Position numbers and translations under genes: made by a program | In this document: piece by piece, positions 44,895 to 62,443 of the stretch | Position numbering within the stretch: the stretch's first letter is position 1 | How the letters are laid out: every line of letters starts with the position of its first letter | Assembly: GCF_014643635.1 (NCBI RefSeq) | Contig: NZ_BMJV01000009.1 | Coordinates: forward strand, 69,560 to 133,559 | Length of the DNA: 64,000 nucleotides | Origin: Salipiger pallidus | GTDB taxonomy: Bacteria; Pseudomonadota; Alphaproteobacteria; Rhodobacterales; Rhodobacteraceae | Direction of reading: 5' to 3' | The notes under the pieces: model-generated | Databases searched by the model: none | Seen by the model: only the letters and a program-made list of their open reading frames with translations | What the model was told of the DNA's origin: nothing

Positions 44895-45800
44895 TCACAT
44901 CTTTGGGGAGAAAAAGCTGCTATAGTAGCAGCTCTTCTTTGCGAGGTCTGCGATGTGTTTCCGAAACTTCGAGGTTCGATCGCTCTTGTAGAGGACAGAA
45001 TATTTCACATGCGGCAGCCTGCCCTCGGTGGGAAGGCGCCTTAGGTGGCCAGCATCTATCAGCGGCTGTGTCACTGGAACCGGCAGATAGCTGATTCCGA
45101 GACCTGACACGGTGAAGCCGATCTGCGCGATGAGGCTTTCACATTGCATTGTTCTGTTTGATTGAAAATTCTGCTCTTCGAGCCATCGGTTGTAGATAAT
45201 CCCTGTGCCGGACCGGTTTCCCTGAACGAGTAGGGTAAATTCTGCCATTTGCTCCTGCCTGAGACGGATGTCCCCCCGATAAAGGCTGGGGGCGACCATC
45301 CAGTCATTCTCGACCGGGGCGATCGGCAAGCGCACGCAGCGGCTGTCATCGAAGACGTCCGGTACGACGATCAGGTCGATGGAATCCTCGATCAACCGCT
45401 CGAACAAGGTGGCGCTCAGTTCCACTTCGGGCTCGATGCTGACTCTCGGGAATTCCGAGCGGATGACACTGACCAGCTTGGGCAGCCAGGTCATCGCGGT
45501 GAGCTCGGTGACACCTATACGTAGGCGGCGAAACATGACCTCGTTCGAACTGGCGCGTTCGATCATCTGGTCGCGATCGCTCAGCAGCTTCTTGGCGAAA
45601 GAGAGGATCTCATTGCCCTTGTCGGTCAGACGGGCGGTGCGCCTCGAGCGATCGAAAATCTCGATCTGGAACTGGGCTTCCAGCTCCTGCACCCGTTTCG
45701 ACACCGCCGACTGGGTGGTACAGAGCTTGTCGGCGGCGGCGGCGAAGCTACCGAGATTGGCGATCCAGTAGATGGCTTCGAGTTGCTTGAAGGTGATCAT
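44895..45800 (-). CDS. LysR-family transcriptional regulator
   Basis: A 301-residue LysR regulator. The winged helix is at 4-63 (QLEAIYWIANLGSFAAAADK, TTQSAVSKRVQELEAQFQIE). The effector domain follows (LRIGVTELTAMTWLPKLVSV, LIVVPDVFDD). It lies 105 bases downstream of pxpA on the same strand, at the end of the lactam-type operon, and probably regulates it. Confidence 0.9.
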   Translation of the reverse strand: MITFKQLEAIYWIANLGSFAAAADKLCTTQSAVSKRVQELEAQFQIEIFDRSRRTARLTDKGNEILSFAKKLLSDRDQMIERASSNEVMFRRLRIGVTELTAMTWLPKLVSVIRSEFPRVSIEPEVELSATLFERLIEDSIDLIVVPDVFDDSRCVRLPIAPVENDWMVAPSLYRGDIRLRQEQMAEFTLLVQGNRSGTGIIYNRWLEEQNFQSNRTMQCESLIAQIGFTVSGLGISYLPVPVTQPLIDAGHLRRLPTEGRLPHVKYSVLYKSDRTSKFRKHIADLAKKSCYYSSFFSPKM

Positions 45801-45905: not shown

Positions 45906-46667
45906 CTACGCTGCGTAGGGGGCGATACTGCAGCCGCTGTCGGCAATGCCCGCGCGGATCGCATGGGCCAGTTCCAGCGCGCTCGGCGTATCACTGTGCA
46001 CGAGCACCGAGTCGACCTCCATCGGGACCATTTCCCCGGTGGTGAGGCGCAGCATGCCGGTTGCAAGTGTCTCCGCGACCCGTTCACGGACCGCCTCAGG
46101 ATCATGGATCAACGCGCCTTCGGCGCCGCGCGGTGCCAGCCGGCCCGGGGCGCTGTAGCCTCGATCGGCGAGGAAGGAGCGGATGACCGGCAGGCCGAGC
46201 GCCTCGGCGGCGCGGGTCGCTTCGGTGTCCGGCAGGCCGATGAAGGTCAGCGCAGGGTCCACCGCCTTGACAGCCCGCAGGAGAGTTTTCGCGACATCCG
46301 CGTCGGCGAAGGAGAGGTTTCCCAGTGCGCCATGGAAGTTAAAATGGGTTAGCGTTCTGCCTCGCAGACGCGCCACGCCCTGCAGGGCACCGAGCTGTGT
46401 TACGGTCATCAGTTCGAGCTCGCGGTGCGTCATCGGCATCGGACGCCGCCCGAACCCGGCGCGGTCGGGGAACCCGATATGGGCGCCGATGCGCACGGAA
46501 TTTTCCGCCGCGAGGTCGATGGTCTCGCACATGACCTCCGGGTCTCCGGCATGTCCACCGCAGGCGATGTTTGCCGAGGTGATGAGGGGCATCAGCTCGG
46601 CGTCAGGGGCAATGCGATAGGGGCCGAAACCTTCGCCAAGGTCCGAGTTCACGTCGATCTGTCGCAT
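45906..46667 (-). CDS. pxpA: LamB/YcsF family protein, 5-oxoprolinase subunit PxpA-like
   Basis: A 253-residue protein of the LamB/YcsF fold. Conserved segments are DVNSDLGEGFGPY, SANIACGGHAGDPEVM and GAHIGFPDRAGFGRRPM. The usual KPHGALYN box is altered to NFHGALGN. PxpA works with PxpB and PxpC to hydrolyse 5-oxoproline with ATP. The ATG at 46667 places DVNSDLGE at the N-terminus as usual. Variation in the HGAL box and the operon context suggest a relative acting on a different cyclic amide. Confidence 0.87.
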   Translation of the reverse strand: MRQIDVNSDLGEGFGPYRIAPDAELMPLITSANIACGGHAGDPEVMCETIDLAAENSVRIGAHIGFPDRAGFGRRPMPMTHRELELMTVTQLGALQGVARLRGRTLTHFNFHGALGNLSFADADVAKTLLRAVKAVDPALTFIGLPDTEATRAAEALGLPVIRSFLADRGYSAPGRLAPRGAEGALIHDPEAVRERVAETLATGMLRLTTGEMVPMEVDSVLVHSDTPSALELAHAIRAGIADSGCSIAPYAA

Positions 46668-46672
46668 GTGTC

Positions 46673-47065
46673 TCAGGCTCCGGTCGTGATCTTGAACGCG
46701 GGGCTGCCCCAACCAAGGAGGCTGTCGGTCTCGGCAAGCTGCTCGGTGACCGTTCCGTCGCAGGGGGCGGTCAGGGTGTTTCGAACCGGGCCGGCATTCA
46801 GGAAGGCAAGAATGTCGCCTTTGGACACAGTCAGCGGCAGCTCGGTGATCTGGGGCTGGAACAGCCCCGGCGTGTCCGCTGTGACGAAAACCGCCGCTTC
46901 TGCGGGGATCTCTGCGGGCAGGGTCTCGGCAGTGGGGCAGGCAGCCTCAGCGAAGCGAAGCTCGATCCGGTCATCCGGCAGGCCAAATGTCAGCGCGGTG
47001 ACGCCAAATTTCCGGGACACGGCCAAGATGTCCTCGAGGGTGCGGAGGTCGGATGTCATTTCCAT
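46673..47065 (-). CDS. Biotin/lipoyl-carrier-like protein without the biotin lysine
   Basis: A 130-residue protein arranged like AccB: a short N-terminal helix region (LRTLEDILAVSRKFGVTALT), a linker, then a biotinyl/lipoyl-like barrel. Where a real carrier has EAMKMM, this one reads NAGPVRNTLTAPCDGTV, with no Lys in the hairpin loop. It therefore cannot be biotinylated. It lies between pxpC and pxpA with 5-base gaps. A genuine AccB with EAMKMM is encoded 3 kb upstream in the same operon. It may be a structural or assembly subunit. Confidence 0.75.
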   Translation of the reverse strand: MEMTSDLRTLEDILAVSRKFGVTALTFGLPDDRIELRFAEAACPTAETLPAEIPAEAAVFVTADTPGLFQPQITELPLTVSKGDILAFLNAGPVRNTLTAPCDGTVTEQLAETDSLLGWGSPAFKITTGA

Positions 47066-47070
47066 GCGGC

Positions 47071-48039
47071 CTATCCCTTTCGTTGATGTGAGGTTGCGCG
47101 GCGGATCGCCGAGACGAGGTCATCTTCTTCGCGGCGTGCGGCGCGTGCTTCCGCGGCGCAGAACTCGCGGAAGCGCAGCGTGCTGCCCAGCGTCGCCTGC
47201 GCCAGCAGCGGCAGGTCCGCGTCTATGACGACCCCCAGTTTCGGATAGCCCCCGACGGTGTTGGCGTCCAGCATCTGGACGACCGGCCGCCCCGAGGGCG
47301 GAAGCTGGATCGTTCCCGGCAGGATGCCATGCGACAACAGCTCGCGGCGAATTGTCGGCACCATCTCCGGCCCATAGAGGCGATAGCCGATGCGGTTGCT
47401 CGCCGGCTCGATCGTCCAGCCGGTCGCGCAGAACAGGGCGCGAGCCTTCTCGTCGTAGTCGGCCCATTCCATGGCGGGCACGAAGCGGACCTCGGTCTCG
47501 CCCGAGCCGTCGGCCCAGAGATCGGGCCAGGCGCGGGGACTGAGCCCGTAGTCCAGGGCCCGCGTGCCGCTGCTCTCCGCCGCGGTGGTCAGGGTGTCCC
47601 CGGCCTTCAGCAGGCGACCGTCGTGGCCGCCGAAGCCGCCCTTTGCATCGGTGGCGCGCGACCCGAGCACCTCGGGCACGTCGAGGCCCCCCGAGACGGC
47701 GATGTAACCGCGCATTCCGGTGCGGCTGTGACCCATCCTCAGGACCTGTCCGGGCAAGAGGGTCCGCGCCCACCAGCGGGGGAGGGGGCGGCCGTCGAGC
47801 GTCGCTTCGGTATCTGCCCCGGCAAGCGCGATGGCGACGGGCTCCAGCGTCTCGAAGGAGAAACCACCGAGCGTGATCTCGAGGCCGGCCGCCTCCTCGG
47901 CATTGCCGAGCATTGCGTTGGCCACCCTCAGGGCGCGACGATCCATGGCACCGGAGCGCCCGACACCGATGTTCGCAAGGCCTCTCCGCCCAAGGTCCTG
48001 AACCGCCGCTCCGAGGCCGGGATTGAGTATGCGGATCAT
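47071..48039 (-). CDS. pxpC: 5-oxoprolinase subunit PxpC / biotin-dependent carboxyltransferase family (AHS2 domain)
   Basis: A 322-residue AHS2-domain protein, homologous to the second carboxyltransferase lobe of urea carboxylase. Family segments are GLGAAVQDLGRRGLANIGVG, SGAMDRRALRVANAMLGN, RGYIAVSGGLDVPEVLGSRA and PSGRPVVQMLDANTVGGYPK. It forms the carboxyltransferase-like complex with PxpB. The start overlaps the pxpB stop by 4 bases. Confidence 0.92.
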   Translation of the reverse strand: MIRILNPGLGAAVQDLGRRGLANIGVGRSGAMDRRALRVANAMLGNAEEAAGLEITLGGFSFETLEPVAIALAGADTEATLDGRPLPRWWARTLLPGQVLRMGHSRTGMRGYIAVSGGLDVPEVLGSRATDAKGGFGGHDGRLLKAGDTLTTAAESSGTRALDYGLSPRAWPDLWADGSGETEVRFVPAMEWADYDEKARALFCATGWTIEPASNRIGYRLYGPEMVPTIRRELLSHGILPGTIQLPPSGRPVVQMLDANTVGGYPKLGVVIDADLPLLAQATLGSTLRFREFCAAEARAARREEDDLVSAIRRATSHQRKG

Positions 48040-48683
48040 GCGGAGACCTCCTCGACGCTGAAACGCAACCGGTCGCCGGGCTGCAGCAGCGCTGGCTCGT
48101 CGCGGGCATGGTCGAAGAGGCTGACCTGCGTCGCGCCGATGATGTGCCAGCCCGAGGGCGAGGTGCGGGCGATCACGCCCGCCTGTTCACCGCCGATTAC
48201 CACGCTGCCTTCGTCGACGCGTTGCCGCGGCGAGGATCTGCGCGGCGTCGCGAGCCGAGGATCGAGCCCGCCCAAGTAGGGAAATCCGGGCTGCGAGCCG
48301 AGGGCGAAGACGGTGTAGATGGGGGCGGTGTGCAGGGCAATGACTTCGTCGATGCGAAGATCGTGGCACGCGGCGAGCTCCGTGAGGTCCTCGCCGCCGT
48401 AATGCACGGGGATCTCGACGAGCCGGCCCTGTCCATCGGCGGGCCGGGTCTCGTTCCAGAGATCCTGAAGGCGCGCCGCGGTTTCCGCCACTTCGGCCTG
48501 CGGATCGAAACGCACAAGCAGCGAATGCACGCCAAGCACGGTTTCGGTCACGCCGGGAAGATCGCGGCAGCTGCGGTCAAGCGCCCAGTACAGGCGCTGG
48601 ACGTCGAGCGACATCGGCCCGCCGCTCTGGATCAGCAGGGCGCTCTCGCCCATCTCGGAGACATGCGCTGCGGGACTCGTCAT
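48036..48683 (-). CDS. pxpB: 5-oxoprolinase subunit PxpB (AHS1/KipI domain)
   Basis: A 215-residue AHS1-domain protein, homologous to the first carboxyltransferase lobe of urea carboxylase. The hallmark is GSQPGFPYLGGLDPRLATPR, then EGSVVIGGEQAGVIA and SPSGWHIIGATQ. It is the partner of PxpC, starts 1 base after the accC stop and overlaps pxpC. Confidence 0.92.
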   Translation of the reverse strand: MTSPAAHVSEMGESALLIQSGGPMSLDVQRLYWALDRSCRDLPGVTETVLGVHSLLVRFDPQAEVAETAARLQDLWNETRPADGQGRLVEIPVHYGGEDLTELAACHDLRIDEVIALHTAPIYTVFALGSQPGFPYLGGLDPRLATPRRSSPRQRVDEGSVVIGGEQAGVIARTSPSGWHIIGATQVSLFDHARDEPALLQPGDRLRFSVEEVSA

Positions 48684-48684
48684 G

Positions 48685-50031
48685 TCAGGCCTCCGGCGCG
48701 ATGAGATGTTCGATGAAGTGGATCGTCTGCGGCTCCTCCCGGAACGCGGGATGGCTCAGCAGTCGGCGGTGCAGCGGCGCATTGCTCTGGATGCCGTCGA
48801 TGCGCAGCGCCGCGAGGGCGCCCATCATCCGGTCGATGGCCTCTGTCCTGTCCCGGCCCGAGGTGACGAGCTTGGCCACCATGCCGTCGTAGTAGGGTGG
48901 CACCTCGGCTCCGGGCTCGAGATGGGTTTCGACCCGGATGCCGTTTCCGGCCGGAGGAATGAAGTCGCGGACCCGGCCCGGCGTCGGTGCAAAGGTTTCG
49001 GGGTCCTCGGCGTTGATCCGGCACTCCATGGCGTGCCCGTGCAGGGCGATGTCTTCCTGGCGAAGGGTCAGCGGTTCCCCTGCCGCGATGCGCAGCTGCC
49101 ACTGCACGATGTCGATCCCGGTGATCGCCTCGGTCACGCAATGCTCAACCTGCAGGCGGGTGTTCATCTCGATGAAGAACATCTCGCCATCCTGGTAAAG
49201 GAATTCGAAAGTCCCGGCCCCGGCATAGCCGAGATCGCGGCAGGCGCGCAGGCAGGCTGCGGCGGTGGCGTCGATCAGGGCGCGGGAGACGCCCATGGCC
49301 GGCGCTTCTTCGATGACCTTCTGGTGACGGCGCTGCATCGAGCAGTCGCGTTCCCCGAGATGCACAGCGTTGCCATGGGCGTCGGCGAGGATCTGGATCT
49401 CGACGTGGCGCGGCCGGTCGAGGAAGCGCTCCATGAACAGCGTGTCGTCGCCAAAAGCGTTGCGAGCCTCGGCGCGCGTCGTCTTCAGCGCCGCCGCAAG
49501 ATCGTCTGACTGGCGCACCACCCGCATGCCGCGCCCGCCGCCGCCGTGGGCCGCCTTGATGATCACCGGATAGCCGATCCCCGCCGCCACCGTGCGGCAG
49601 GCGTCGAGATCGTCCGGCAGCGGATCGTTGGTGCCGGGCACGCAGGGCACACCCGCGGCGGTCATCACGTTGCGGGCGGCGATCTTGTCACCCATCTTCG
49701 CGATGCACTCGGCTCGGGGGCCGACGAAGGCCAGCCCGGATTCCTCGCAGAGCGCCGCGAATTCGGGGTTCTCCGACAGCAGGCCGTAGCCGGGATGGAC
49801 CGCGTCGCAGTCACTTGCCAGGGCCGCGGCAATGATCCGCGGCATGTTCAGGTAGCTATCCGCGGTGGCGGCCGGTCCGACGCAGACCGCAAGGTCGGCG
49901 GCGCGCACGAAGGAGGTCCCGGCATCGGCGGTGCTGTGGATCTGCACGGTCTCGATCCCGAGCGCGCGCGCGGCGCGCTGGATGCGCAGGGCGATCTCGC
50001 CACGGTTGGCTATGACAAGGCGCTTGATCAT
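48685..50031 (-). CDS. accC: Biotin carboxylase, AccC family
   Basis: A 448-residue ATP-grasp biotin carboxylase. The N-terminus is IANRGEIALRIQRAARALG, the ATP loop is KAAHGGGGRGMRVV, and the catalytic core is EKVIEEAPA-like (QKVIEEAPAMGVS) with FIEMNTRLQVEHCVTE. It carboxylates the biotin of the adjacent carrier with bicarbonate and ATP. The ATG at 50031 overlaps the accB stop (ATGA). Presence in a PxpABC operon with no AccA/AccD suggests the acceptor is an amide or lactam, not acetyl-CoA. Confidence 0.9.
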   Translation of the reverse strand: MIKRLVIANRGEIALRIQRAARALGIETVQIHSTADAGTSFVRAADLAVCVGPAATADSYLNMPRIIAAALASDCDAVHPGYGLLSENPEFAALCEESGLAFVGPRAECIAKMGDKIAARNVMTAAGVPCVPGTNDPLPDDLDACRTVAAGIGYPVIIKAAHGGGGRGMRVVRQSDDLAAALKTTRAEARNAFGDDTLFMERFLDRPRHVEIQILADAHGNAVHLGERDCSMQRRHQKVIEEAPAMGVSRALIDATAAACLRACRDLGYAGAGTFEFLYQDGEMFFIEMNTRLQVEHCVTEAITGIDIVQWQLRIAAGEPLTLRQEDIALHGHAMECRINAEDPETFAPTPGRVRDFIPPAGNGIRVETHLEPGAEVPPYYDGMVAKLVTSGRDRTEAIDRMMGALAALRIDGIQSNAPLHRRLLSHPAFREEPQTIHFIEHLIAPEA

Positions 50032-50495
50032 GCTTCGGCCTCCCGGATCAGGACCAGCGGTTGCCCGGCGGCCACCATGTCTCCGGCGGCGACGAGCACC
50101 TCCACGATCATGCCGTCGCACTCGCTGTCAATGTTGGTCATCATCTTCATCGCCTCGATCACCGCGACCGTGGTCCCTGCGGTGATCTTCTCTCCAGCGG
50201 CGACCAGGGCGGGCTCGCCCGGCGCCGCGGTCAAATGCACGATCCCGGACACCGGGGCGACGATGGAGTGCGTCACGGTGTCTGCCGGTGTCGCCTGCCC
50301 AGGGGCAGGCGGCTCAGGACCTTCGGTTCGAAGAGAGTCACCCGCCGAGGCCGAGATGGCCGGGCCCGGCCCGAAGCTTACGTCGAGGTACCAGTCGCCG
50401 CGATGGATCCGGAGGGCATCGAGCCGATAGTCCCTCCCAAGGCGAAGCAGGTCCTCGTACTCGGACAGGGTGAGGGGAGCATTCCTGTACGCCAT
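50028..50495 (-). CDS. accB: Biotin carboxyl carrier protein, AccB family
   Basis: A 155-residue carrier protein. The N-terminal region (EDLLRLGRDYRLDALRIHRG) is AccB-like. A Pro/Ala-rich linker runs over about 45-72. The C-terminal biotinyl domain carries the intact VAVIEAMKMMTNIDSECDG with its biotin Lys. It works with the overlapping accC product. Confidence 0.9.
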   Translation of the reverse strand: MAYRNAPLTLSEYEDLLRLGRDYRLDALRIHRGDWYLDVSFGPGPAISASAGDSLRTEGPEPPAPGQATPADTVTHSIVAPVSGIVHLTAAPGEPALVAAGEKITAGTTVAVIEAMKMMTNIDSECDGMIVEVLVAAGDMVAAGQPLVLIREAEA

Positions 50496-50496
50496 C

Positions 50497-51129
50497 CTAC
50501 TTCGCGTAGGCCCCGGTATAGGTTCCCGCCTCGATCGAGGCCAGGATCTCGGCCTCCTTGCGGGCCTGGGCCTGCGTCGCGGCCAGTGTAGCGGGGGCCT
50601 CGTCGGGCCGGATCGCCACGATCCCGTCTGCGTCGCCGAGGACGATGTCGCCGGGGTGGACCACCATCCCGCCGATTGTCACCGGCACGTTGATCGCACC
50701 CGGACCGTTCTTGTAGGGGCCAAGGTGAATGACGCTGCGCGCGAAGACCGGGAAGTCGCCGCCGACGATCTCGTCGATGTCGCGGATCGCACCGTCGAGC
50801 ACGAAACCGGCCGCGCCGCGCTTGCGCGCGATGGCCACCATGATGCCGCCGATCAGCGCGCGATCCTCGTAGCCCGCACCGTCGACGACGATGACGTCAC
50901 CCGGCTGCACCAGGTCGAGAGCGCGGTGGATGAAGGCGTTGTCGCCCGGCGCTGTCTTGACCGTCAGCGCGCGGCCGACCATTGGCGCGGCCCCGTGGAA
51001 CGGCCGCAGGCCGATCGCCCCACGCAGGCGGTCAAGGTTGTCGCTGACGTTGGCGACGGCGCATTTGCCGAATTCCGTGATCAGCTCTAGGTCGGCCGGC
51101 TGCGCGGCGGCGGTGGATGTCGGGGTCAT
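50497..51129 (-). CDS. RraA-family protein (4-hydroxy-4-methyl-2-oxoglutarate aldolase-like)
   Basis: A 210-residue RraA-fold protein. Conserved segments are KTAPGDNAFIHRALDLVQPG, GFVLDGAIRDIDEI with the Arg-Asp pair, HLGPYKNGPGAINVPVTIGG and IVLGDADGIVAI. Enzymes of this kind split 4-hydroxy(-4-methyl)-2-oxoglutarate to pyruvate plus an oxo acid, or decarboxylate oxaloacetate. It overlaps the aminotransferase gene by 4 bases, so it probably acts on the keto acid that enzyme produces. Confidence 0.87.
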   Translation of the reverse strand: MTPTSTAAAQPADLELITEFGKCAVANVSDNLDRLRGAIGLRPFHGAAPMVGRALTVKTAPGDNAFIHRALDLVQPGDVIVVDGAGYEDRALIGGIMVAIARKRGAAGFVLDGAIRDIDEIVGGDFPVFARSVIHLGPYKNGPGAINVPVTIGGMVVHPGDIVLGDADGIVAIRPDEAPATLAATQAQARKEAEILASIEAGTYTGAYAK

Positions 51130-52367
51130 GACTGATCTGCCTTTTCGAGTGTCTGGGGTGCCGGGGTCAGCTGCGCCACCGCCGCGGCGATAGCCGCGAC
51201 GCCGGCGCGGATGTTTTCGTTGGACGCGGCGAAGGACAGCCGCAGGAAACCCGGCGTGCCATAGGAGGTGCCGTCCATGACCGCGACAGAGGCCTCGTCG
51301 AGCAGGTAGTCGACGAGGTCGATGTCCGTGGCGATGCGACGACCGGCCGGGGTCACCGTGCCGAGCAGGGCGCGCACGTCGGGGAAGACGTAGAAGGCGG
51401 CATCAGGCAGCGCGCAGGTGATCCCCGGTGCGGCGCTAAGCCCATCGACGATCAGCTTGCGCCGCTCGCTGTAGGCGGCGAGCATCTCGTCCACCGCGGG
51501 ATGCTCGGCCTCCAGCGCGGTAATTGCCGCAGTCTGGGCAAAGGCGCACGGGCAGCTGGTCGACTGGCTCAGGAGCTTCGTCACCGCCTTGATCACCTCG
51601 ACCGGACCAGCGGCATAGCCGACGCGCCAGCCGGTCATGGCATAGGCCTTCGACATGCCGTTAACGACGACACAGCGGTCTTTTAGCGCGGGGGCGATGG
51701 AGGTCGGCGTGATGGTGAGGTTGCCCTCGTAGAAGATCTTCTCGTAGATCTCGTCGGTCAGCACGGCGACCTGCGGATGCCGCTCCAGCACTTCTACCAG
51801 CGCCAGCCATTCGTCCTTCGTGTAGACGGCACCGGTCGGGTTCGACGGCGAGTTGACGATCAGCCAGCGGGTGCGCCCGGTGATCGCCGCTTCCAGGATC
51901 TCGGGGGTCAGCTTGAAGTTCACCTCCGGTCCGCAGGTGGCGATCACCGGCACGCCGCCATTCAGCGAAACGATGTCCGGGTAGCTCACCCAGTAGGGCG
52001 TGGGAACGATCACCTCGTCGCCCTCGGACAGCGTCGCGGCGAGCACCTCAAAGATGAGCTGCTTCGCGCCGTTGCCGATCACGATTTCCGAAGGATCGTA
52101 GGACACGCCGTTCTCGACCTCGAGCTTGCGCGACACGGCCTGGCGGAGCGCGAGCTTGCCCTGTGCCGAGGTGTAGTGCGTATCTCCGGAGCGCATGGCC
52201 TTTTCCGCCGCGGCGATGATGTATTCGGGCGTGTCGAAATCGGGCTCTCCGAGGCAGAAGTCGAGAATGTTCCTCCCAGCCGCCTCGAGTTCAAGCACGC
52301 GCTGCTTGGCCGCCATGCTGGGCGAGGGGCGCAACTTCTGCACCTTGGCGGAAATGGGGATCGGCAT
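51126..52367 (-). CDS. Pyridoxal-phosphate aminotransferase class I (aspartate aminotransferase-like)
   Basis: A 413-residue fold-type I aminotransferase. It has LDFCLGEPDFDTPEYI, the Asn in VNSPSNPTGAVY, VLTDEIYEKIFY, the PLP Lys in VNGMSKAYAMTGWRVGY and the substrate carboxylate Arg in GFLRLSFAASNENIRAGV. It transaminates a dicarboxylic amino acid such as glutamate or aspartate. In this operon it would convert the ring-opened amino acid to a 2-oxo acid for the RraA-type lyase (inference). Confidence 0.9.
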   Translation of the reverse strand: MPIPISAKVQKLRPSPSMAAKQRVLELEAAGRNILDFCLGEPDFDTPEYIIAAAEKAMRSGDTHYTSAQGKLALRQAVSRKLEVENGVSYDPSEIVIGNGAKQLIFEVLAATLSEGDEVIVPTPYWVSYPDIVSLNGGVPVIATCGPEVNFKLTPEILEAAITGRTRWLIVNSPSNPTGAVYTKDEWLALVEVLERHPQVAVLTDEIYEKIFYEGNLTITPTSIAPALKDRCVVVNGMSKAYAMTGWRVGYAAGPVEVIKAVTKLLSQSTSCPCAFAQTAAITALEAEHPAVDEMLAAYSERRKLIVDGLSAAPGITCALPDAAFYVFPDVRALLGTVTPAGRRIATDIDLVDYLLDEASVAVMDGTSYGTPGFLRLSFAASNENIRAGVAAIAAAVAQLTPAPQTLEKADQS

Positions 52368-52379
52368 TGAAGAACCTCT

Positions 52380-52539
52380 TTGGTTTCAGTCAGTCGGGGG
52401 CTCTCCGAGGCAGTCGGAGGAGCGACGTTCAGGGGGCGCCGGGTGCAAGGTTTCGGCGGGGTTCGCCCCGTGCCTTGGGCAAGGCTGGCCACTCCCGTGC
52501 CCGAAGGCACGGGGGAGCCGGGACGGCGTGGAGGGTGAA
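52380..52539. terminator. Hairpin-rich intercistronic region between dctM and the aminotransferase gene
   Basis: CTCCCGTGCC (52492-52501) pairs with GGCACGGG(G)GAG (52506-52516). Two smaller stems lie nearby (CCTTG-GG-CAAGG at 52473-52484, and GGCG..CGCC near 52457-52466). There is no T-run. It probably acts as an attenuator or processing site separating transporter from enzyme expression. Confidence 0.5.
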
Positions 52540-53847
52540 TCAGCCGCCGGTCACAAGATCGGGAACGACCGAGACGATGCCGGGGAAAATCGCGAGCACC
52601 AGCACGAAGACGAGCATGATGGTGAAGAAGGGCAGGGCGGCGCGGACGATTTCTCCGAGAGGCTTGCGGGTCAGCCCCTGCAGCACGAAGAGATTCATCC
52701 CCACGGGTGGCGAGATCTGCGCGAGTTCCACCATCAGGATCAGGAAGATCCCGAACCACAGGCTGTCGTAGCCGGCAGCGGTGACCAGGGGCAGGACGAT
52801 CGGGATGGTCATCACGATGATCGACATGCCCTCGAGGAAGCTGCCAAGGACGATGTAGATGACGATCAGCAGGACGATCAGCATCAGCGGCGACAGGTTG
52901 AGCCCGTTGACGAAGCCGGACACCGCGCGCGGCATGCCGAGGAAGCCCATGGCCATCGACAGGAAGGAGGCCGAGGCGATGATGAGACCGAGCATCGAGA
53001 CGGTGCGAGAGGTGCCGATCGCCGCGTCGCGCAGTGCCCGCAGCGACAGCGATCCCTCGAAGGCCATGATCACGACGGTGGCGAATACTGCGAAGGCGGC
53101 GGCTTCGGTCGGGCTTGCCAAGCCGCCGTACATCGACCCGAGCACGGCGAGGATCAGCACGAGGAAAGGCAGGAGCCGGGGCAGGCCGCCAAAACGCTGC
53201 TTCCACAGCGCTTTGCGGTCGATACTGTCGGAGCGGCCGACGATGCCGGGGGACAGTTTAGCCCGCAGAATGACGTAGCCGACGAAGCTGAGCGCGAGCA
53301 GGAGGCCGGGCAGTATGCCCGCGGCAAAGAGCTTCAGCACAGAGGTCTGGGACAGCACGCCGTAGACGATCATGATGATCGACGGGGGGATCAGGAAGCC
53401 CAGCGTCCCAGCCCCGGCGAGAGTGCCGATGACGAGGCGCTCATCGTAGCCACGCTTCTTCAGCTCGGGAATGGTGATGCGCCCGATGGAGGTGGTGGTC
53501 GCGGCCGAAGAGCCCGAGATCAGCGCGAAGAGCGCGCAGCCGAAGATATTGGTATGCAGCAGCCCTCCGGGCAGGTCACGCAGCCAGGGCTCCAGCGCGC
53601 TGAACACACCGTTGATGAACTTCGTGCGGAAGAGCAGCTCCGCCATCATTATGAAGAGTGGCAGGGCCAGCAGCTCGGGCGAGGAGAGACCGTTCCACAC
53701 GGATTGAGCCAGCAACTTCTCGACCGGCATATTGCGGAAGATTTCGAGGCTGAGGATCCCGATGCCGGAAAGGCCCAGTCCGACCCAGACGCCCGAGCCC
53801 AGGATGGCGAGAAGAATGACGAAGGGGAAAAGAACAGATGCGGTCAT
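52540..53847 (-). CDS. TRAP transporter large permease, DctM family
   Basis: A 435-residue permease with about 12 hydrophobic segments and the DctM motifs LPLFIMMAELLFRTKFINGV, FALISGSSAATTTSIGRITI, GFLIPPSIIMIVYGVLS and AQISPPVGMNLFVLQGLT. It imports the operon's substrate with the DctQ and DctP proteins. It starts 6 bases after dctQ. Confidence 0.94.
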   Translation of the reverse strand: MTASVLFPFVILLAILGSGVWVGLGLSGIGILSLEIFRNMPVEKLLAQSVWNGLSSPELLALPLFIMMAELLFRTKFINGVFSALEPWLRDLPGGLLHTNIFGCALFALISGSSAATTTSIGRITIPELKKRGYDERLVIGTLAGAGTLGFLIPPSIIMIVYGVLSQTSVLKLFAAGILPGLLLALSFVGYVILRAKLSPGIVGRSDSIDRKALWKQRFGGLPRLLPFLVLILAVLGSMYGGLASPTEAAAFAVFATVVIMAFEGSLSLRALRDAAIGTSRTVSMLGLIIASASFLSMAMGFLGMPRAVSGFVNGLNLSPLMLIVLLIVIYIVLGSFLEGMSIIVMTIPIVLPLVTAAGYDSLWFGIFLILMVELAQISPPVGMNLFVLQGLTRKPLGEIVRAALPFFTIMLVFVLVLAIFPGIVSVVPDLVTGG

Positions 53848-53853
53848 TTCGGG

Positions 53854-54366
53854 TCAATCCATGATCGGGGCGGGGTCGTCCTCGCCGGTCGTGTCGAGCT
53901 CGAGCTCCTTGCCGAGAAGCAGGGCGAGTAGCCGCAGCGCGACCTGCAGCGTCAGCACCCCGCAGCCGAAGACCACGAAGGCGGCCGGGATGATGAGCGG
54001 CGTGTCGGTGGTGGTGCCGGTGGTCCGGCCCGACCAGAGGTAGCCGAGCGCAAGCTGCGTCATGGCACTGGTGAGGAAGAGGGCGATTGCGAGGCCGATG
54101 AGGCCGCTAATCCATTCAAAGCCCCGCGGGATGAAGCCGCGCAGCAGCGTCACCCGGATGTGGCCGCCGGTACGCAACGTCCAGCCGGCGCCGAGAAAGA
54201 CCGCCGAGATATGGATGAAGACGGAGTATTCCCACACGAAATGCAGGCTAATCCCGGCGAGCTTGCGCAGGAAGATTTCTGCGACGATCAAGACGACGAT
54301 GCAGCAAATCGCCAGACCCGACAGCAAAGAAAGAGCGTAGGACAGGCGGTCAACGGTCTTGATCAT
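53854..54366 (-). CDS. TRAP transporter small permease, DctQ family
   Basis: A 170-residue membrane protein with four hydrophobic segments. It carries the DctQ loop LIVAEIFLRKLAGISLHFVW, then EYSVFIHISAVFLGAGWTLR and TGGHIRVTLL. The frame is open further upstream, but the ATG at 54366 follows GAGGG and gives the normal N-terminus. Confidence 0.9.
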   Translation of the reverse strand: MIKTVDRLSYALSLLSGLAICCIVVLIVAEIFLRKLAGISLHFVWEYSVFIHISAVFLGAGWTLRTGGHIRVTLLRGFIPRGFEWISGLIGLAIALFLTSAMTQLALGYLWSGRTTGTTTDTPLIIPAAFVVFGCGVLTLQVALRLLALLLGKELELDTTGEDDPAPIMD

Positions 54367-54438
54367 TATGGGGTTTCCCTCGGTTGTCGGAACGTCGCGG
54401 GCCGAGATGGCCCGCGACATGGGTCGTCTCAGCAGGGG

Positions 54439-55401
54439 TCAGCGGCCCTTGAAGCCGTCAACGATGGCCGTGGCCTCGTCACCCAGTTCCTCGAGCACCG
54501 CTGCGCGCAGCGGTGCTGCCAGGTCTGCCAGCTCGGCGCGCAGCTCATCCGAGATCGGCGCGAGCGTCATGCCATTCTCGGCAAGGACGTCCATGTTGCG
54601 GGCATCCTCGTCCTGGGCAGCCTGCCAGAATTCGGGCTGGAGCTTGTCGGCAATCTCGCTGATCGCGGTCTGGTCGGCTTCGTCCAGCGCGTTCCAGCTG
54701 TCGAGGTTGACGGTCACCGCGTTCAGGTTCCAAGTCTGCCGGGTCGGGTAGCCGTACTCGAGGAATTCCCAGAACGAGCCGTCGACCGCGGAGGGCGAGG
54801 AGGTCGCCACCGAGTCGATGGCGCCCGCTGCCAGCGAGGGGATCACCTCGCCCCAGGGCAGTTGTACCGGGGTCATGCCGGCAGAGGCGAAGACTTCGGT
54901 CGAGGAGCGGTCATAGGAGCGGATCTTGATCCCCGCGAGCGAGGCCAGATCGGTGACCTCGGTCTTGGTCCAGATCTGCTGCTGCGGCCAAGGCATCGTG
55001 TAGAGCAGCTTCTGGTTGTTGGCTTCCATGATCGCTTCGAGCTCTTCGCGGAAGAAGTCCTCGAATTCCGCAAGTTCCTCGGAGGAGGATATGAAGTAGG
55101 GAAGCGAGGTCAGACCAAGCAGCGGCTCGTCGCCGACCTGCTGGTTGAGCAGCATGTCACCGATCGGTACGAGACCGTCGCGCACCGCGCCGAGCATCTC
55201 CGGGCCCTTGAAGCCGAGGGCACCGCCGGGGTGCAGCGCGATCTCGACCCGCCCATCGGTAGCATCCTTCACGTCGTCGGCGAAGGTTGCGGCGGCTACC
55301 GAGATGTAGTTCTCGGCCGGCCATGCAAGTGGAAGGTCCCAGTTTTCGGCTGCCGCGGGGGCGGCTGCCAGAGTCGCGAGCATGAGGCTGCGGTAAAGCA
55401 T
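54439..55401 (-). CDS. TRAP transporter substrate-binding protein, DctP family
   Basis: A 320-residue binding protein. The signal peptide is MLYRSLMLATLAAAPAAA, and the mature start is ENWDLPLAWPAENYISVAAA. DctP features are TDGRVEIALHPGGALGFKGP and the carboxylate-binding Arg region LAGIKIRSYDRSSTEVFASA, where Ser/Tyr changes around the Arg set it apart from the one at 10791-11798. It is the first gene of the long leftward operon. An AGGGAAAA site precedes the ATG at 55401, and an AT-rich region lies upstream. Confidence 0.92.
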   Translation of the reverse strand: MLYRSLMLATLAAAPAAAENWDLPLAWPAENYISVAAATFADDVKDATDGRVEIALHPGGALGFKGPEMLGAVRDGLVPIGDMLLNQQVGDEPLLGLTSLPYFISSSEELAEFEDFFREELEAIMEANNQKLLYTMPWPQQQIWTKTEVTDLASLAGIKIRSYDRSSTEVFASAGMTPVQLPWGEVIPSLAAGAIDSVATSSPSAVDGSFWEFLEYGYPTRQTWNLNAVTVNLDSWNALDEADQTAISEIADKLQPEFWQAAQDEDARNMDVLAENGMTLAPISDELRAELADLAAPLRAAVLEELGDEATAIVDGFKGR

Positions 55402-56208
55402 GATTTTTCCCTGAAGTTTATGTTTGTCTTTGCGATCGAGTATGAAGGAAAACCTAAGGCGCATAGTTTTTTAAAAAAAGAGAATATAATTTTCATAAAA
55501 AAATTCCCAAAAGTGATGTGTTGGCCGTTCGTTGATCGAGAGAGGCGCTTGGATGTACGAAGGTTTTCAATGTTTGCCCGAACTTGAACGACCGCTCGCG
55601 CCTCCCTGAGCAGCCGCGCAGCCATTCCACGTCCGGCGCCGCAACAAGCGGATCTGTCTTCTCAATGACAGCTTGATTGAATCGGCTTGATTTGTGGCGA
55701 TGGCTGAACCTGCGGACGCTACTGGCCCTAGCCGATTTTTCCTGAGTTGTATCCCAGGTGAGTGTTTTTGGAACACTGGCCTTCGAGGAGATTGCACTAC
55801 GGTCCGTGTTGCTAGTCCCGGCATTGCACCTATCTCTCTGCGGGCTTGTCGGAAAGCCAGGTTGTGCGCTTTCAAGCAGCCCACAAGACGCGCTCCAGCC
55901 AGCCGTCCAAGCCCGTGCCATCGCAGCTGATGGCTCTTAATGGCCGAGCAATAACTAGCGGTGTTGCCTCCCCCGAGCGACGGGCTCGGGCGCGTCGCGC
56001 GGTTTTCTATGGGGTACGATCGTCGTTCCGTGCCCAACCCTTGCGCAAGCTTATAGCTTTCGGCATCCATATCGAAGACGTTGACGTGGCAATATTTTAC
56101 ATAACCCTCATTACGCGGCACTTTTAGCGGCAGGTCGCGCGCTGCCCTGAAGTTCGATTCCCATATAAACAGACGTTTATCTAATGGATAGCCTCTGCCA
56201 ATGAAGCG
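55402..56208. other. 807-base non-coding region: AT-rich promoter side, then decayed sequence
   Basis: Bases 55440-55520 are strongly AT-rich (runs such as TTTTTTAAAAAAAG and ATAAAAAAATT), fitting a promoter for the leftward TRAP operon. The remainder to 56208 has an open frame on the reverse strand without any family features, start signal or codon pattern that I trust. A GTTCGATTCC near 56152 looks like a tRNA T-loop, but its flanks do not pair. No gene is supported. Confidence 0.4.
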
Positions 56209-57090
56209 ATTTACGCGCAACTGAGCGTCATGGACCGTGTCCAGATCGAACGCTGGAAGCTGGCAAAGGTCCCTGTCCGGGAGATGGCGCGCGTGTTGCC
56301 TCGCTCGAAAGCCACTATCATCGCGAAACCAAACGAAGCTGGTTCAGCGATGAGTGCCTGCCGGTTTACGGCGCCGACGCGCATCACCGAGCCAACAGTC
56401 GGCGCGCCCGCCAGCGCAAGCTGATCCGGCATCCTCAGCTTCGAAATCAGGTGGCCGAGCGGATCAAGAACGGCCCCCTCTCGGCAGCATGCCGCGCACG
56501 CGCCTGCCGGTCGACGGGACGTCTGAGCAAATCGGCAACCAGCTGGTCCACGAAGGTGTGACGCTCCGGGTCTGCCAGGAAACGATCTACCACTACATCT
56601 ACTTGAAGGAAGGCATGGCGCAGGAGCTTTTGTGGTACCTACCCGAACACTGAAAGGCCCGCCAACCACATCGCGCCCGCAAGCGCCGCGCTGAAAGTCG
56701 ACCGTGATGTCAGTATCCTCTTCCGCCCGGATGATGTCGCACACCGCGGGGAATTTGGTCACTGGGAAGACGATTTGATGCTGTTCGCACAATCCTCGCG
56801 AGACCAACGTCACCTCTCTTGTCCAACGCGGCGGCCACTTCACCGTGTTGCTGAAGAGCACGAACAGGCGTACGAAACCGGTCATGCACTGCCCGGCAGG
56901 CGGTTGCGTCGTGCTAGAGCATGACGCAATCTGCCGAGAGGGAAAAGTTCGTGAAGGCGGTTCGGGATCTGAACTGGTGGGCCACAGATCCCTCACCTTC
57001 GACTGCGGCACGGGGTTCGTATCATGGCCGCACCGGCAGGCCCAGCTCGGAACCCAGACCTGGGTCTGCGACCCCTCCTCATCTGGTGCT
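56209..57090 (+). pseudogene. IS30-family transposase, multiply frameshifted
   Basis: Blocks in different frames follow the order of an IS30 transposase. The N-terminal HTH is IYAQLSVMDRVQIERWKLAK, VPVREMARVLPRSKATI. The middle is RHPQLRNQVAERIKNG, then EQIGNQLVHEGVTLRVCQET, IYHYIYLKEGMAQELLW. The catalytic start is RPDDVAHRGEFGHWEDDL. The later part is LLKSTNRRTKPVM, RSLTFDCGTGFVSWP and GTQTWVCDPSSS. Several catalytic positions are altered (for example FDCGTG for the usual FDRGTE). The element is dead and its ends are not evident. Confidence 0.75.
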
Positions 57091-57224
57091 GGACCGTGCG
57101 TGCGCCATATCGGCAACGACTGCCATCCTAGATTTGTCTGGCCTGGTCCAATGCCAGGCCAGGATCACGCGTCGGCGTCAGATGGTCGCCATTCCGGCAA
57201 GGGCCGCAGCCTGCTTTCCACAAA

Positions 57225-61624: not shown

Positions 61625-62260
61625 TCAGATGACGGACATCAGGGTTTCGAGTTCCTTTACCGAATTGCAGGATGTCTTGCGGTAGATGTTGTGACGATGG
61701 GTTTCGACAGTGCGTACCGAGATGTCGAGACTGCTCGCCACTTCCTTGGTAGAGGCACCTCCAACGCAGGCTTCCAGCACTTCGAGCTCGCGGGCCGAAA
61801 GGCCGAAGATGTTGCCGCTGCGCATGAGGGTCCGGCGGCAGCTCACGAACTCCCGCATGAGGTTTGACGGCAAAAAGGCGTGTCCCGACAACGCGGCATT
61901 CACGGCGTTGACGTAATCCTCTGCCGAGGCCGAACGCGGCAGGATACTGACCGCGCCATGAGACAGCGCAACGAAAGCGTTAGCGACCGATGTGTTCTCG
62001 GTGACCACGACGATGTGAAGGTCGGGCAGCGCCGAGCGCAATCGCGCCATCGTATCGCTGGCCGCCGGTCTGGCGATCGACATGTCAAGAACCAGAAGGT
62101 CGGGCCGGTGGTGCCTGCACATCTTGAGCGTTTCGTAACCGTCCTTCGTCTGTGCAACAACATTGACGCCACACTGCCTAGTCAAATGGTCGGACACGGT
62201 CTGCCGGACAATCTCCAATGCGTCGGCAACCACGATGCGGTGTTCAGTGCTGTTCACCAT
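61625..62260 (-). CDS. LuxR/NarL-type regulator with atypical receiver domain
   Basis: A 211-residue protein. Residues 5-120 form a response-regulator receiver and 145-205 a LuxR helix-turn-helix (LSARELEVLEACVGGASTKE, VASSLDISVRTVETHRHNIY). The phosphorylatable Asp is present in LLVLDMSIARP. The acidic pair that should read DD is AD-Ala (VVADALEIV), and the Lys near the end is Arg (ILPRSASAED). The ATG at 62260 follows AGGAGAAGG. It lies between sctV and the HrpF-like gene on the same strand, so it is a likely controller of this secretion locus. Confidence 0.85.
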   Translation of the reverse strand: MVNSTEHRIVVADALEIVRQTVSDHLTRQCGVNVVAQTKDGYETLKMCRHHRPDLLVLDMSIARPAASDTMARLRSALPDLHIVVVTENTSVANAFVALSHGAVSILPRSASAEDYVNAVNAALSGHAFLPSNLMREFVSCRRTLMRSGNIFGLSARELEVLEACVGGASTKEVASSLDISVRTVETHRHNIYRKTSCNSVKELETLMSVI

Positions 62261-62443
62261 CAGGCCTTCTCCTGGTTCCACTCCGAGGACCCTTTCCCCG
62301 CGGGCAAGATGCAGTGTTGTTCAGGCTCTGTAAACTACACGTCTTAGTAGCATTTCTTCTGGGTAGCGAGATTATCGGAGATTTTTTCGAACAACGATAA
62401 GCAGTTGTCAATTGCTCGCCGCCCGGGCATTTGCTCAAAAAGC

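What the first reader, a model, noticed from the sequence alone, without database searches (positions are those of the whole stretch)
45906..55401. Split urea-carboxylase-like lactam pathway with its own TRAP importer, aminotransferase and aldolase
AccC (biotin carboxylase), PxpB (AHS1), PxpC (AHS2) and AccB (biotin carrier) are exactly the domains that urea carboxylase carries in one chain, here as overlapping separate genes with the PxpA hydrolase. There is no AccA/AccD, so the carboxyl acceptor is probably an amide or lactam nitrogen. Adding the aminotransferase and an RraA/HMG-aldolase-like lyase gives a plausible route. The steps would be: uptake of a 4-hydroxy- or 4-hydroxy-4-methyl-pyroglutamate-like lactam, biotin-dependent carboxylation, ring opening, transamination to 4-hydroxy(-4-methyl)-2-oxoglutarate, and cleavage to pyruvate. 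I know of no described pathway with this exact set. The domains are seen; the pathway is inference.
Basis: partly seen in the sequence, partly recalled or inferred. Interest (0 to 1): 0.8.

Follow-up and report, generated by a model that had tools for sequence, protein, structure and literature searches.

The report
Biotin-linked lactam operon with lysine-less carrier
A marine-type bacterium carries a compact set of genes that probably imports a ring-shaped amino acid, opens the ring with help from a biotin enzyme and breaks the product down, and the set includes an overlooked small protein that looks like the biotin carrier but lacks the one residue that carries biotin.

Summary
One strand of a genome near Alloyangia pacifica carries DctPQM, an aminotransferase, an RraA-like lyase, AccB, AccC, PxpB, PxpC and PxpA. 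A lysine-less BCCP occurs in 41 of 41 AccC-linked rows (38 loci) of one 54-row PxpC clade, in 7 of its 13 AccC-less rows, and in 0 of 38 plain PxpABC rows. PxpB and PxpC carry residues that set this clade apart from plain 5-oxoprolinase, and the genome holds a plain pxpABC elsewhere. The TRAP receptor's closest solved relatives are, by recall, pyroglutamate binders. Aminotransferase and RraA genes recur with the clade. I think this is a split, probably biotin-dependent opener of a 5-oxoproline-like lactam, feeding transamination and perhaps aldol cleavage. Against it: Pseudooceanicola keeps the transporter, aminotransferase, RraA and Pxp genes, but genome searches found no dedicated AccBC and no clear lysine-less BCCP, so the biotin part is dispensable in some lineages. 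The substrate is inference. The parts are known; my limited searches found no description of this combination or of such a carrier in bacteria.

The parts
54439..55401 (-). DctP, TRAP solute receptor of the pyroglutamate-type group
   Evidence: Pfam DctP; best solved relatives 6wgm, 2pfy, 2pfz at 153/135/135 bits, next 73; 46% to a second such receptor of the same genome
53854..54420 (-). DctQ, TRAP small permease
   Evidence: Pfam DctQ
52540..53847 (-). DctM, TRAP large permease
   Evidence: Pfam DctM, TIGR00786 over cut-off
51126..52367 (-). class I/II aminotransferase, aspartate-aminotransferase-like
   Evidence: Pfam Aminotran_1_2; PRK06107 524.4 bits, cut-off 617, not reached; best solved relative 6f35, aspartate aminotransferase B
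50497..51129 (-). RraA/HMG-CHA-aldolase-like lyase
   Evidence: Pfam RraA-like, PRK06201 over cut-off; best solved relative 3noj; R116-D117 kept, position 95 is Gly
50028..50495 (-). AccB, biotin carrier with EAMKM
   Evidence: Pfam Biotin_lipoyl; motif read
48685..50031 (-). AccC, biotin carboxylase of the Pxp-linked type
   Evidence: PRK08591 659.2 bits; lies in the 29-row group (26 linked rows, the window and two other linked copies) of the quick AccC tree
48036..48683 (-). PxpB (carboxyltransferase subdomain C/D); Ser130 where plain PxpB has Phe
   Evidence: TIGR00370 over cut-off; residues
47071..48039 (-). PxpC (carboxyltransferase subdomain A/B); Gln255 where plain PxpC has Leu
46673..47065 (-). 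lysine-less BCCP paralogue (pseudo-carrier, 'BCCP2'): Pro93 where AccB has the biotinyl Lys
45906..46667 (-). PxpA (LamB/YcsF), ring-opening hydrolase subunit
   Evidence: Pfam LamB_YcsF, NF003814 over cut-off; start chosen by eye at MRQIDVNSD, 5 bp after the BCCP2 stop
44895..45800 (-). LysR-type regulator, likely of this operon
   Evidence: Pfam HTH_1 and LysR_substrate; LysR genes near the cluster in L134, L136, L137, L141, L143 and others

Best explanation
A catabolic operon for a gamma-lactam amino acid related to 5-oxoproline. Step 1 (inferred from receptor kinship): DctPQM imports the lactam. Step 2 (inferred): AccC uses ATP and bicarbonate to carboxylate the biotin of AccB. Step 3 (inferred): PxpB-PxpC move the carboxyl group to the lactam nitrogen or lactim oxygen, which activates the ring. 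Step 4 (inferred from the known PxpA role): PxpA hydrolyses the activated ring to an open-chain glutamate analogue. Step 5 (inferred): the aminotransferase turns it into a 2-oxo acid. Step 6 (inferred): the RraA-like enzyme cleaves that acid, most simply a 4-hydroxy-2-oxo acid, to pyruvate plus a second oxo acid. The overlooked lysine-less BCCP is most likely a non-catalytic assembly or docking subunit that joins AccC-AccB to PxpBC-PxpA, in the way proposed for plant BADC proteins. Shown: the genes, their order, the families, the clade and its residues, the loss of lysine. Inferred: every reaction. My odds: gamma-lactam acid as ligand 0.7; ring opening by PxpABC 0.8; carboxybiotin needed here 0.55; BCCP2 as assembly or docking subunit 0.5; aldol cleavage of a 4-hydroxy-2-oxo acid 0.45.
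For: Tight operon, conserved in A. pacifica. PxpC tree of 96 rows: a 54-row clade (95/88 support) holds 41 AccC-linked rows; a neighbouring 26-row plain group holds none; over the tree the AccC label needs 11 changes against a mean of 32 when shuffled. PxpB position 130 is Phe in 38 of 38 plain rows and Ser/Ala/Thr in 51 of 51 clade rows; PxpC 255 is Leu in 38 of 38 plain rows and Gln in 50 of 54 clade rows. Lysine-less BCCP in 41 of 41 AccC-linked clade rows; Lys column K in 33 of 33 carriers and 0 of 39 pseudo-carriers; profile match to AccB prob 99.9, E 1.3e-31; top fold match the E. coli AccB biotinyl domain; own motifs G[YFWH]G 31 of 39 and HP 26 of 39, both 0 of 27 in AccB. Haematobacter plasmid: LysR-AT-RraA (71%)-amino-acid ABC importer-Glu/Leu/Phe/Val dehydrogenase with no Pxp genes annotated in the 24.5 kb shown, as expected if AT and RraA act on the open-chain product. 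Two Pxp sets and two such receptors in one genome suggest different substrates. PDB 9yx5 is titled as a mycobacterial acyl-CoA carboxylase complex with MSMEG_0435-0436, PxpC/PxpB homologues, bound, so such proteins can bind a biotin carboxylase.
Against: In L136, L158 and L135 genome searches found no AccC of this type and no BCCP-like match above 38 bits other than a lysine-bearing AccB, although their PxpBC keep the clade residues; 13 of 54 clade rows are AccC-less. With relatedness controlled, AccC and BCCP2 go together in on average 2.5 of 8 independent pairs, none against, not significant; AccC with AT and AccC with RraA are not significant either. The urea carboxylase catalytic Lys is Arg in all 89 PxpB rows. 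RraA relatives of about 50-55% identity also sit in clusters without lactam genes, and this RraA has Gly at the expected acid position, as do 5 of 33 rows. L113, with the same order from DctP to PxpA, has no RraA in its 12.7 kb. DctP lies near only 5 of 47 clade rows. BCCP2 dN/dS against A. pacifica is 0.49, AccB 0.38, PxpC 0.14: weaker constraint.
Confidence: 0.5

Rival explanations
1. It is an ordinary 5-oxoproline pathway: TRAP uptake of pyroglutamate, ATP-dependent PxpABC to glutamate, aminotransferase to 2-oxoglutarate with oxaloacetate as acceptor, RraA as an oxaloacetate decarboxylase. AccBC and BCCP2 are auxiliary or inherited passengers.
For: AccBC-less relatives keep the rest. RraA's best solved relative is named CHA aldolase/oxaloacetate decarboxylase. 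The aminotransferase is aspartate-aminotransferase-like. Bordetella DctP6 and DctP7 bind 5-oxoproline (PMC13274462, passages).
Against: The genome already has a plain pxpABC with a similar TRAP receptor some 8 kb away. The clade-wide residue differences in PxpB/PxpC. AccBC with BCCP2 kept in 38 loci of a deep clade. Plain 5-oxoproline needs no aldolase (established pathway knowledge).
Confidence: 0.25
2. The substrate yields aspartate rather than a glutamate analogue: a cyclic imide, hydantoin- or dihydroorotate-like acid is carboxylated and opened, the aminotransferase gives oxaloacetate, and RraA decarboxylates it to pyruvate.
For: Aspartate-type aminotransferase beside a RraA whose kin include oxaloacetate decarboxylases; one pair of enzymes would then suffice.
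Against: The DctP group is, by recall, the pyroglutamate one. Two clade loci carry proline-type genes (proC, proline racemase family, Ldh family), which point to a five-membered ring.
Confidence: 0.12
3. AccC-AccB-PxpBC is a urea- or guanidine-carboxylase-like enzyme for a small amide, and PxpA acts as its hydrolase.
Against: The transferase lysine of urea carboxylase is Arg here; no amidase or allophanate hydrolase domain among the proteins scanned; the six urea-carboxylase-type proteins compared are single chains of 1197-1353 residues; amino-acid-type import and an aminotransferase fit poorly with urea.
Confidence: 0.05

Closest known systems
PxpABC prokaryotic 5-oxoprolinase (Niehaus 2017 not held; known through passages of PMC13274462)
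   Same: PxpA, PxpB and PxpC are all present and adjacent; ring opening of a lactam acid is the expected chemistry
   Different: Adds AccB, AccC and a lysine-less BCCP in the same operon; PxpC misses the NCBI 5-oxoprolinase PxpC cut-off; PxpB F130 to S and PxpC L255 to Q
Urea carboxylase / urea amidolyase (PMC5770610, passages)
   Same: Biotin carboxylase, AHS2, AHS1 and BCCP domains
   Different: Split into separate genes; conserved Lys of the transferase is Arg; no allophanate hydrolase; extra PxpA and pseudo-BCCP
LamA-LamB lactam utilisation of Aspergillus nidulans (recalled, not read; the paper opened did not treat it)
   Same: A urea-carboxylase-like biotin protein together with a LamB/YcsF protein for 2-pyrrolidinone: a genetic precedent for biotin-linked lactam opening
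   Different: Fused fungal protein, different lactam, no TRAP, aminotransferase, RraA or pseudo-BCCP known to me
Caprolactamase CapAB (PMC8453981, passages)
   Same: ATP- and bicarbonate-dependent lactam hydrolysis; one of three proposed mechanisms goes through a carboxylated lactim
   Different: Unrelated protein family, no biotin
Plant BADC proteins (PMC11926652, passages)
   Same: BCCP homologues that lack the biotinylation motif and are proposed to help the BC-BCCP complex assemble; an inhibitory role has also been proposed
   Different: Plant plastid acetyl-CoA carboxylase; kinship between BADC and the bacterial pseudo-BCCP was not tested; that paper calls BADC unique to the plant enzyme
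M. smegmatis MSMEG_0435-0436 bound to the long chain acyl-CoA carboxylase complex (PDB 9yx5, title only)
   Same: PxpB/PxpC homologues in contact with a biotin carboxylase complex
   Different: The carboxylase subunit is an alpha3-type chain; what the contact does was not read

Membership tests
PxpABC 5-oxoprolinase | PxpA and PxpB family models reached | tested here: met
   NF003814 305.3 (cut-off 226), TIGR00370 200.9 (cut-off 145.55)
PxpABC 5-oxoprolinase | PxpC equivalog NF045499 reached | tested here: not met
   297.6 bits against 500
PxpABC 5-oxoprolinase | residues shared by all plain PxpB/PxpC rows compared (PxpB F130, PxpC L255) | tested here: not met
   Ser and Gln; plain 38 of 38 and 38 of 38
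PxpABC 5-oxoprolinase | ATP-dependent opening of 5-oxoproline without biotin | not testable with these tools
   needs enzyme assay
Urea carboxylase | BC, CT A/B, CT C/D and BCCP domains | tested here: met
   all four, as separate genes
Urea carboxylase | conserved CT lysine (Lys1605 in K. lactis, PMC5770610 passages) | tested here: not met
   Arg148; K in 6 of 6 urea-carboxylase-type proteins, R in 89 of 89 PxpB rows; the identification with Lys1605 rests on a position estimate
Urea carboxylase | allophanate hydrolase (amidase) partner | tested here: not met
   no amidase domain among the proteins scanned
Heteromeric acetyl-CoA carboxylase | AccA and AccD with AccB and AccC | tested here: not met
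   no AccA/AccD among the cluster proteins scanned; full-length AccA on contig 3
HMG/CHA aldolase (RraA-like) | subfamily model PRK06201 reached | tested here: met
   274.6 bits, cut-off 231; the model's own description is hypothetical protein
HMG/CHA aldolase (RraA-like) | LigK equivalog TIGR02798 reached | tested here: not met
   117.7 bits, cut-off 304.5
HMG/CHA aldolase (RraA-like) | acid-x20-Arg-Asp motif (recalled) | tested here: inconclusive
   R116-D117 present, position 95 is Gly; 28 of 33 RraA rows have Glu or Asp there
Pyroglutamate-binding DctP group | closest solved relatives are pyroglutamate receptors | tested here: inconclusive
   6wgm, 2pfy, 2pfz far ahead of the rest; the ligands of these entry codes are recalled; no ligand contact was tested
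BADC-like pseudo-BCCP | homology to BCCP over its length | tested here: met
   hhalign 99.9%, E 1.3e-31; 4hr7_B E 5.1e-24; Foldseek 1bdo
BADC-like pseudo-BCCP | no biotinylation lysine | tested here: met
   0 of 39 rows have K in the Lys column
BADC-like pseudo-BCCP | promotes BC-BCCP assembly | not testable with these tools
   needs binding and activity assays
BADC-like pseudo-BCCP | common descent with plant BADC | not tested
   no plant sequence was compared

The most novel reading that the evidence does not exclude
A bacterial six-subunit biotin-dependent lactamase (AccC, AccB, pseudo-BCCP, PxpB, PxpC, PxpA) in which an old, non-biotinylated BCCP paralogue acts as an obligatory assembly or hand-over subunit between the biotin carboxylase and a 5-oxoprolinase-like machine: a bacterial counterpart in function of plant BADC, and a second, biotin-driven way of opening lactams beside ATP-driven PxpABC.
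Probability: 0.4. Interest if true: 0.8.

Novelty: new variant of a known kind. Interest (0 to 1): 0.6.

Why it matters
If true, many Proteobacteria carry an undescribed biotin-dependent way to open lactam acids that databases now label as acetyl-CoA carboxylase and 5-oxoprolinase pieces, which misleads metabolic models. The lysine-less BCCP would show that non-biotinylated carrier paralogues are not confined to plant plastids, and gives a small bacterial system in which their role can be tested. It also gives a clean natural comparison: relatives with and without the biotin part around what looks like the same pathway.

Tried and rejected
Considered and rejected: chance grouping (same order in A. 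pacifica, recurrence in several families). A dedicated AccBC placed elsewhere in the AccBC-less relatives: searches at E 1e-60 found 3, 2 and 4 AccC-like genes in the Pseudooceanicola, Xanthobacteraceae and Halocynthiibacter genomes, none in the Pxp-linked group of the quick AccC tree (their types, housekeeping or CoA- or pyruvate-carboxylase, are my reading of tree place and frame length). A lysine-less BCCP there: the best match in each was a lysine-bearing AccB beside AccC, and no other match passed 38 bits; in four of the five genomes only 150 of 214-313 first-look candidates were scored, and the weaker matches were not all read. Bordetella sp. BOR01 (L152) gave the same picture; Cupriavidus (L210) does have a separate AccB-AccC-PxpBC set with a lysine-less match of 111.8 bits on another contig. 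Decay as the cause of the missing lysine: the family has its own motifs and the 39 lysine-less rows form one side of the quick tree (SH-aLRT 99.4); without the motif columns the tree needs two changes, so a single origin is not shown. Urea-carboxylase-like catalysis, lowered by the Lys/Arg difference.

Led nowhere: literature on the exact set. Searches: 5-oxoprolinase/PxpB/biotin carboxylase (22 papers, 20 listed), lactam utilization/YcsF/urea carboxylase, lamA/lamB/2-pyrrolidinone (10 listed), PA0492-PA0495, urea carboxylase structure, PGAP product names, RraA/4-hydroxyglutamate (none). Titles and abstract starts in these listings showed no described AccBC-PxpABC-aminotransferase-RraA pathway. 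For lysine-less carriers only the BADC search was made (25 papers, 15 listed), which could not show a bacterial case under another name. Passages were seen of PMC13274462, PMC8453981, PMC8683493, PMC5770610, PMC5812351 and PMC11926652; no paper was read whole. Two papers asked for by DOI (Niehaus; the K. lactis urea carboxylase structure, DOI recalled) are not held. Co-occurrence tests with relatedness controlled were mostly too small. The VIA list is a second look at Foldseek's own matches and says nothing of families not listed.

Full report
What is there. The minus strand of the window carries, in order of transcription, DctP-DctQ-DctM, aminotransferase, RraA-like lyase, AccB, AccC, PxpB, PxpC, an unnamed 130-aa gene, PxpA and a LysR regulator. 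From the aminotransferase to PxpA neighbours overlap by 4 bp or lie 1-5 bp apart. The genome is 4.44 Mb in 23 contigs; its nearest named relative found is Alloyangia pacifica DSM 26894, with the whole cluster in the same order at 82-98% identity.

The missed gene. The gene at 46673-47065 has no Pfam or NCBIfam match at E 0.001. It was recognised because annotated relatives carry a 'biotin attachment', 'BCCP subunit' or similar small gene beside PxpA, AccC or PxpC. A profile of 39 such proteins matches the AccB profile over its length (probability 99.9, E 1.3e-31), matches E. coli BCCP in both its N-terminal and biotinyl parts (4hr7_B, E 5.1e-24), and 27 of 39 members, not the window's own, hit Pfam Biotin_lipoyl at E 0.01. 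The predicted structure (mean pLDDT 86.9, about 97 in the carrier domain) has the E. coli biotinyl domain 1bdo as its top match (E 1e-4, TM 0.80 by target length). The biotinyl lysine is absent: in the common alignment the Lys column is K in 33 of 33 carriers and in 0 of 39 pseudo-carriers, most often Pro (15 of 39), as in the window. The pseudo-carriers have their own motifs, G[YFWH]G near the C-terminus in 31 of 39 and HP in 26 of 39, against 0 of 27 AccB for both.

Distribution. A tree of 96 thinned rows puts the window in a 54-row clade (support 95/88) in which 41 rows have AccC within 9.5 kb. A neighbouring group of 26 plain rows has none; of its 12 rows with a named organism 11 are Enterobacterales. 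A lysine-less BCCP was found in 41 of 41 AccC-linked clade rows (38 loci, as three Bradyrhizobium loci give two rows), in 0 of 38 plain rows, and in 7 of 13 AccC-less clade rows, two of which also have a lysine-bearing AccB. For two AccC-linked rows no lysine-bearing AccB was counted: L140, whose AMKM was cut off by segment trimming (it shows), and L184, on a 3.4 kb contig. With relatedness controlled the AccC-BCCP2 link rests on 2.5 of 8 pairs, none against: mostly shared inheritance, so the argument is retention over a deep clade and not repeated gain.

Clade residues. PxpB position 130 is Phe in 38 of 38 plain rows and Ser, Ala or Thr in 51 of 51 clade rows; PxpC 255 is Leu in 38 of 38 plain rows and Gln in 39 of 41 AccC-linked and 11 of 13 AccC-less clade rows. 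All 10 AccBC-less rows with a PxpB keep a clade-type residue at 130. In six urea-carboxylase-type single chains the only fully conserved lysine of the stretch aligned to PxpB falls on Arg148, which is Arg in all 89 PxpB rows. PMC5770610 (passages) calls Lys1605 of the K. lactis enzyme the likely general base; that this is the same lysine rests on my position estimate.

Two sets in one genome. A second pxpA and pxpBC pair lies on contig 8 without AccBC beside it, and some 8 kb away a second TRAP receptor, 46% identical to the first, also closest to 2pfz, 2pfy and 6wgm. PMC13274462 (passages) reports that Bordetella DctP6 and DctP7 were solved with 5-oxoproline, Kd 0.3 uM for DctP7; that these are 2pfz and 2pfy, and what 6wgm binds, is recalled. 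Two parallel sets suggest different substrates.

Partners. Within 9.5 kb, in rows with at least 6 kb on both sides: aminotransferase (250 bits or more to this one) 35 of 47 clade rows against 1 of 35 plain rows; RraA (80 bits or more) 28 of 47 against 0 of 35, at 120 bits or more 14 of 47 against 0 of 35; AccC 37 of 47 against 0 of 35; DctP 5 of 47 against 0 of 35, so TRAP is not a constant partner. These counts do not allow for kinship; the pairwise test supports only AT with RraA (median p 0.03, range to 0.06). Haematobacter massiliensis plasmid pOT1-2 has LysR, aminotransferase, RraA at 71%, an amino-acid ABC importer and a Glu/Leu/Phe/Val dehydrogenase, with no Pxp gene annotated in the 24.5 kb shown. 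Bradyrhizobium sp. 62B has RraA at 55% near hydantoinase/oxoprolinase subunits. Both fit a lactam that becomes an open-chain amino acid, then a 2-oxo acid, then is cleaved. Against a narrow reading, RraA relatives of about 50-55% also sit in hydroxy-acid-type clusters without lactam genes, and this RraA has Gly where 28 of 33 rows have Glu or Asp.

The main result against biotin dependence. Pseudooceanicola endophyticus (L136) has DctP 77%, DctM 81%, aminotransferase 67%, RraA 72%, PxpC 61% and PxpA 71% identical, in the same order, with no AccBC between. Its genome gave three AccC-like genes, none in the Pxp-linked group, and no BCCP-like match above 38 bits other than a lysine-bearing AccB. 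The Xanthobacteraceae genome (L158) and Halocynthiibacter (L135, Pxp and TRAP genes only) gave the same picture. Either PxpABC of this clade can work without carboxybiotin, or it borrows the housekeeping carrier. In Bosea (L214) a short ORF between PxpA and PxpB looks like a remnant of AccB and AccC (AccB part by eye; AccC-like pieces), which would be a loss.

How it probably works. I favour carboxybiotin activation of the lactam by AccC-AccB-PxpBC, hydrolysis by PxpA, then transamination and cleavage. Precedents: CapAB caprolactamase needs bicarbonate, and one of three proposed mechanisms goes through a carboxylated lactim (PMC8453981, passages); PxpB/PxpC homologues appear bound to a mycobacterial acyl-CoA carboxylase complex by the title of PDB 9yx5. 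For the pseudo-carrier the nearest idea is plant BADC: not biotinylated, lacking the AMKL motif, proposed as a 'glue' for BC-BCCP (an inhibitory role has been proposed too), and called unique to the plant enzyme (PMC11926652, passages). I claim likeness in working, not common descent.

Verdict.

Noticed in passing
G000 contig 8, 93390-96018 and 103703-104767 (L005, L263): The same genome has a second, plain pxpABC without AccBC beside it, with two aminotransferases next to pxpA and a second pyroglutamate-type TRAP receptor some 8 kb away.
   Followed up: partly
L214:10924-11364: Bosea plasmid ORF between PxpA and PxpB that looks like the start of AccB joined to the end of AccC, a deletion remnant (AccB part judged by eye).
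   Followed up: partly
L161, L201: AccB and lysine-less BCCP next to PxpA but no AccC found within the stretch; may share the housekeeping AccC.
   Followed up: no
L122, L128, L131: A second, distant AccC-linked PxpC group with a short MK-type carrier and no lysine-less BCCP found; in L131 PxpB is only 26% alike, in the other two no PxpB match was listed.
   Followed up: no
L182, L194, L211, L212: Bradyrhizobium loci with two PxpB-PxpC pairs around one AccC and one lysine-less BCCP.
   Followed up: no
window 57314-61531 (-): A 1405-aa ORF in a stretch of lower GC without any Pfam or NCBIfam match; two further unmatched ORFs at 55567-56220 and 56211-57116.
   Followed up: no
window 61625-63997 (-): A LuxR-type response regulator and an FHIPEP-family export protein whose best NCBIfam model is type III SctV (269.5 bits, cut-off 692.25); it lacks the start of the profile and probably runs beyond the window end.
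   Followed up: no
L256: Haematobacter plasmid cluster LysR-aminotransferase-RraA-amino acid ABC importer-Glu/Leu/Phe/Val dehydrogenase without annotated Pxp genes in the stretch shown.
   Followed up: partly
L257: Bradyrhizobium sp. 62B plasmid: hydantoinase/oxoprolinase A and B subunits, a DUF4286 gene, an MFS transporter and RraA in a row, another lactam-type enzyme near RraA.
   Followed up: no
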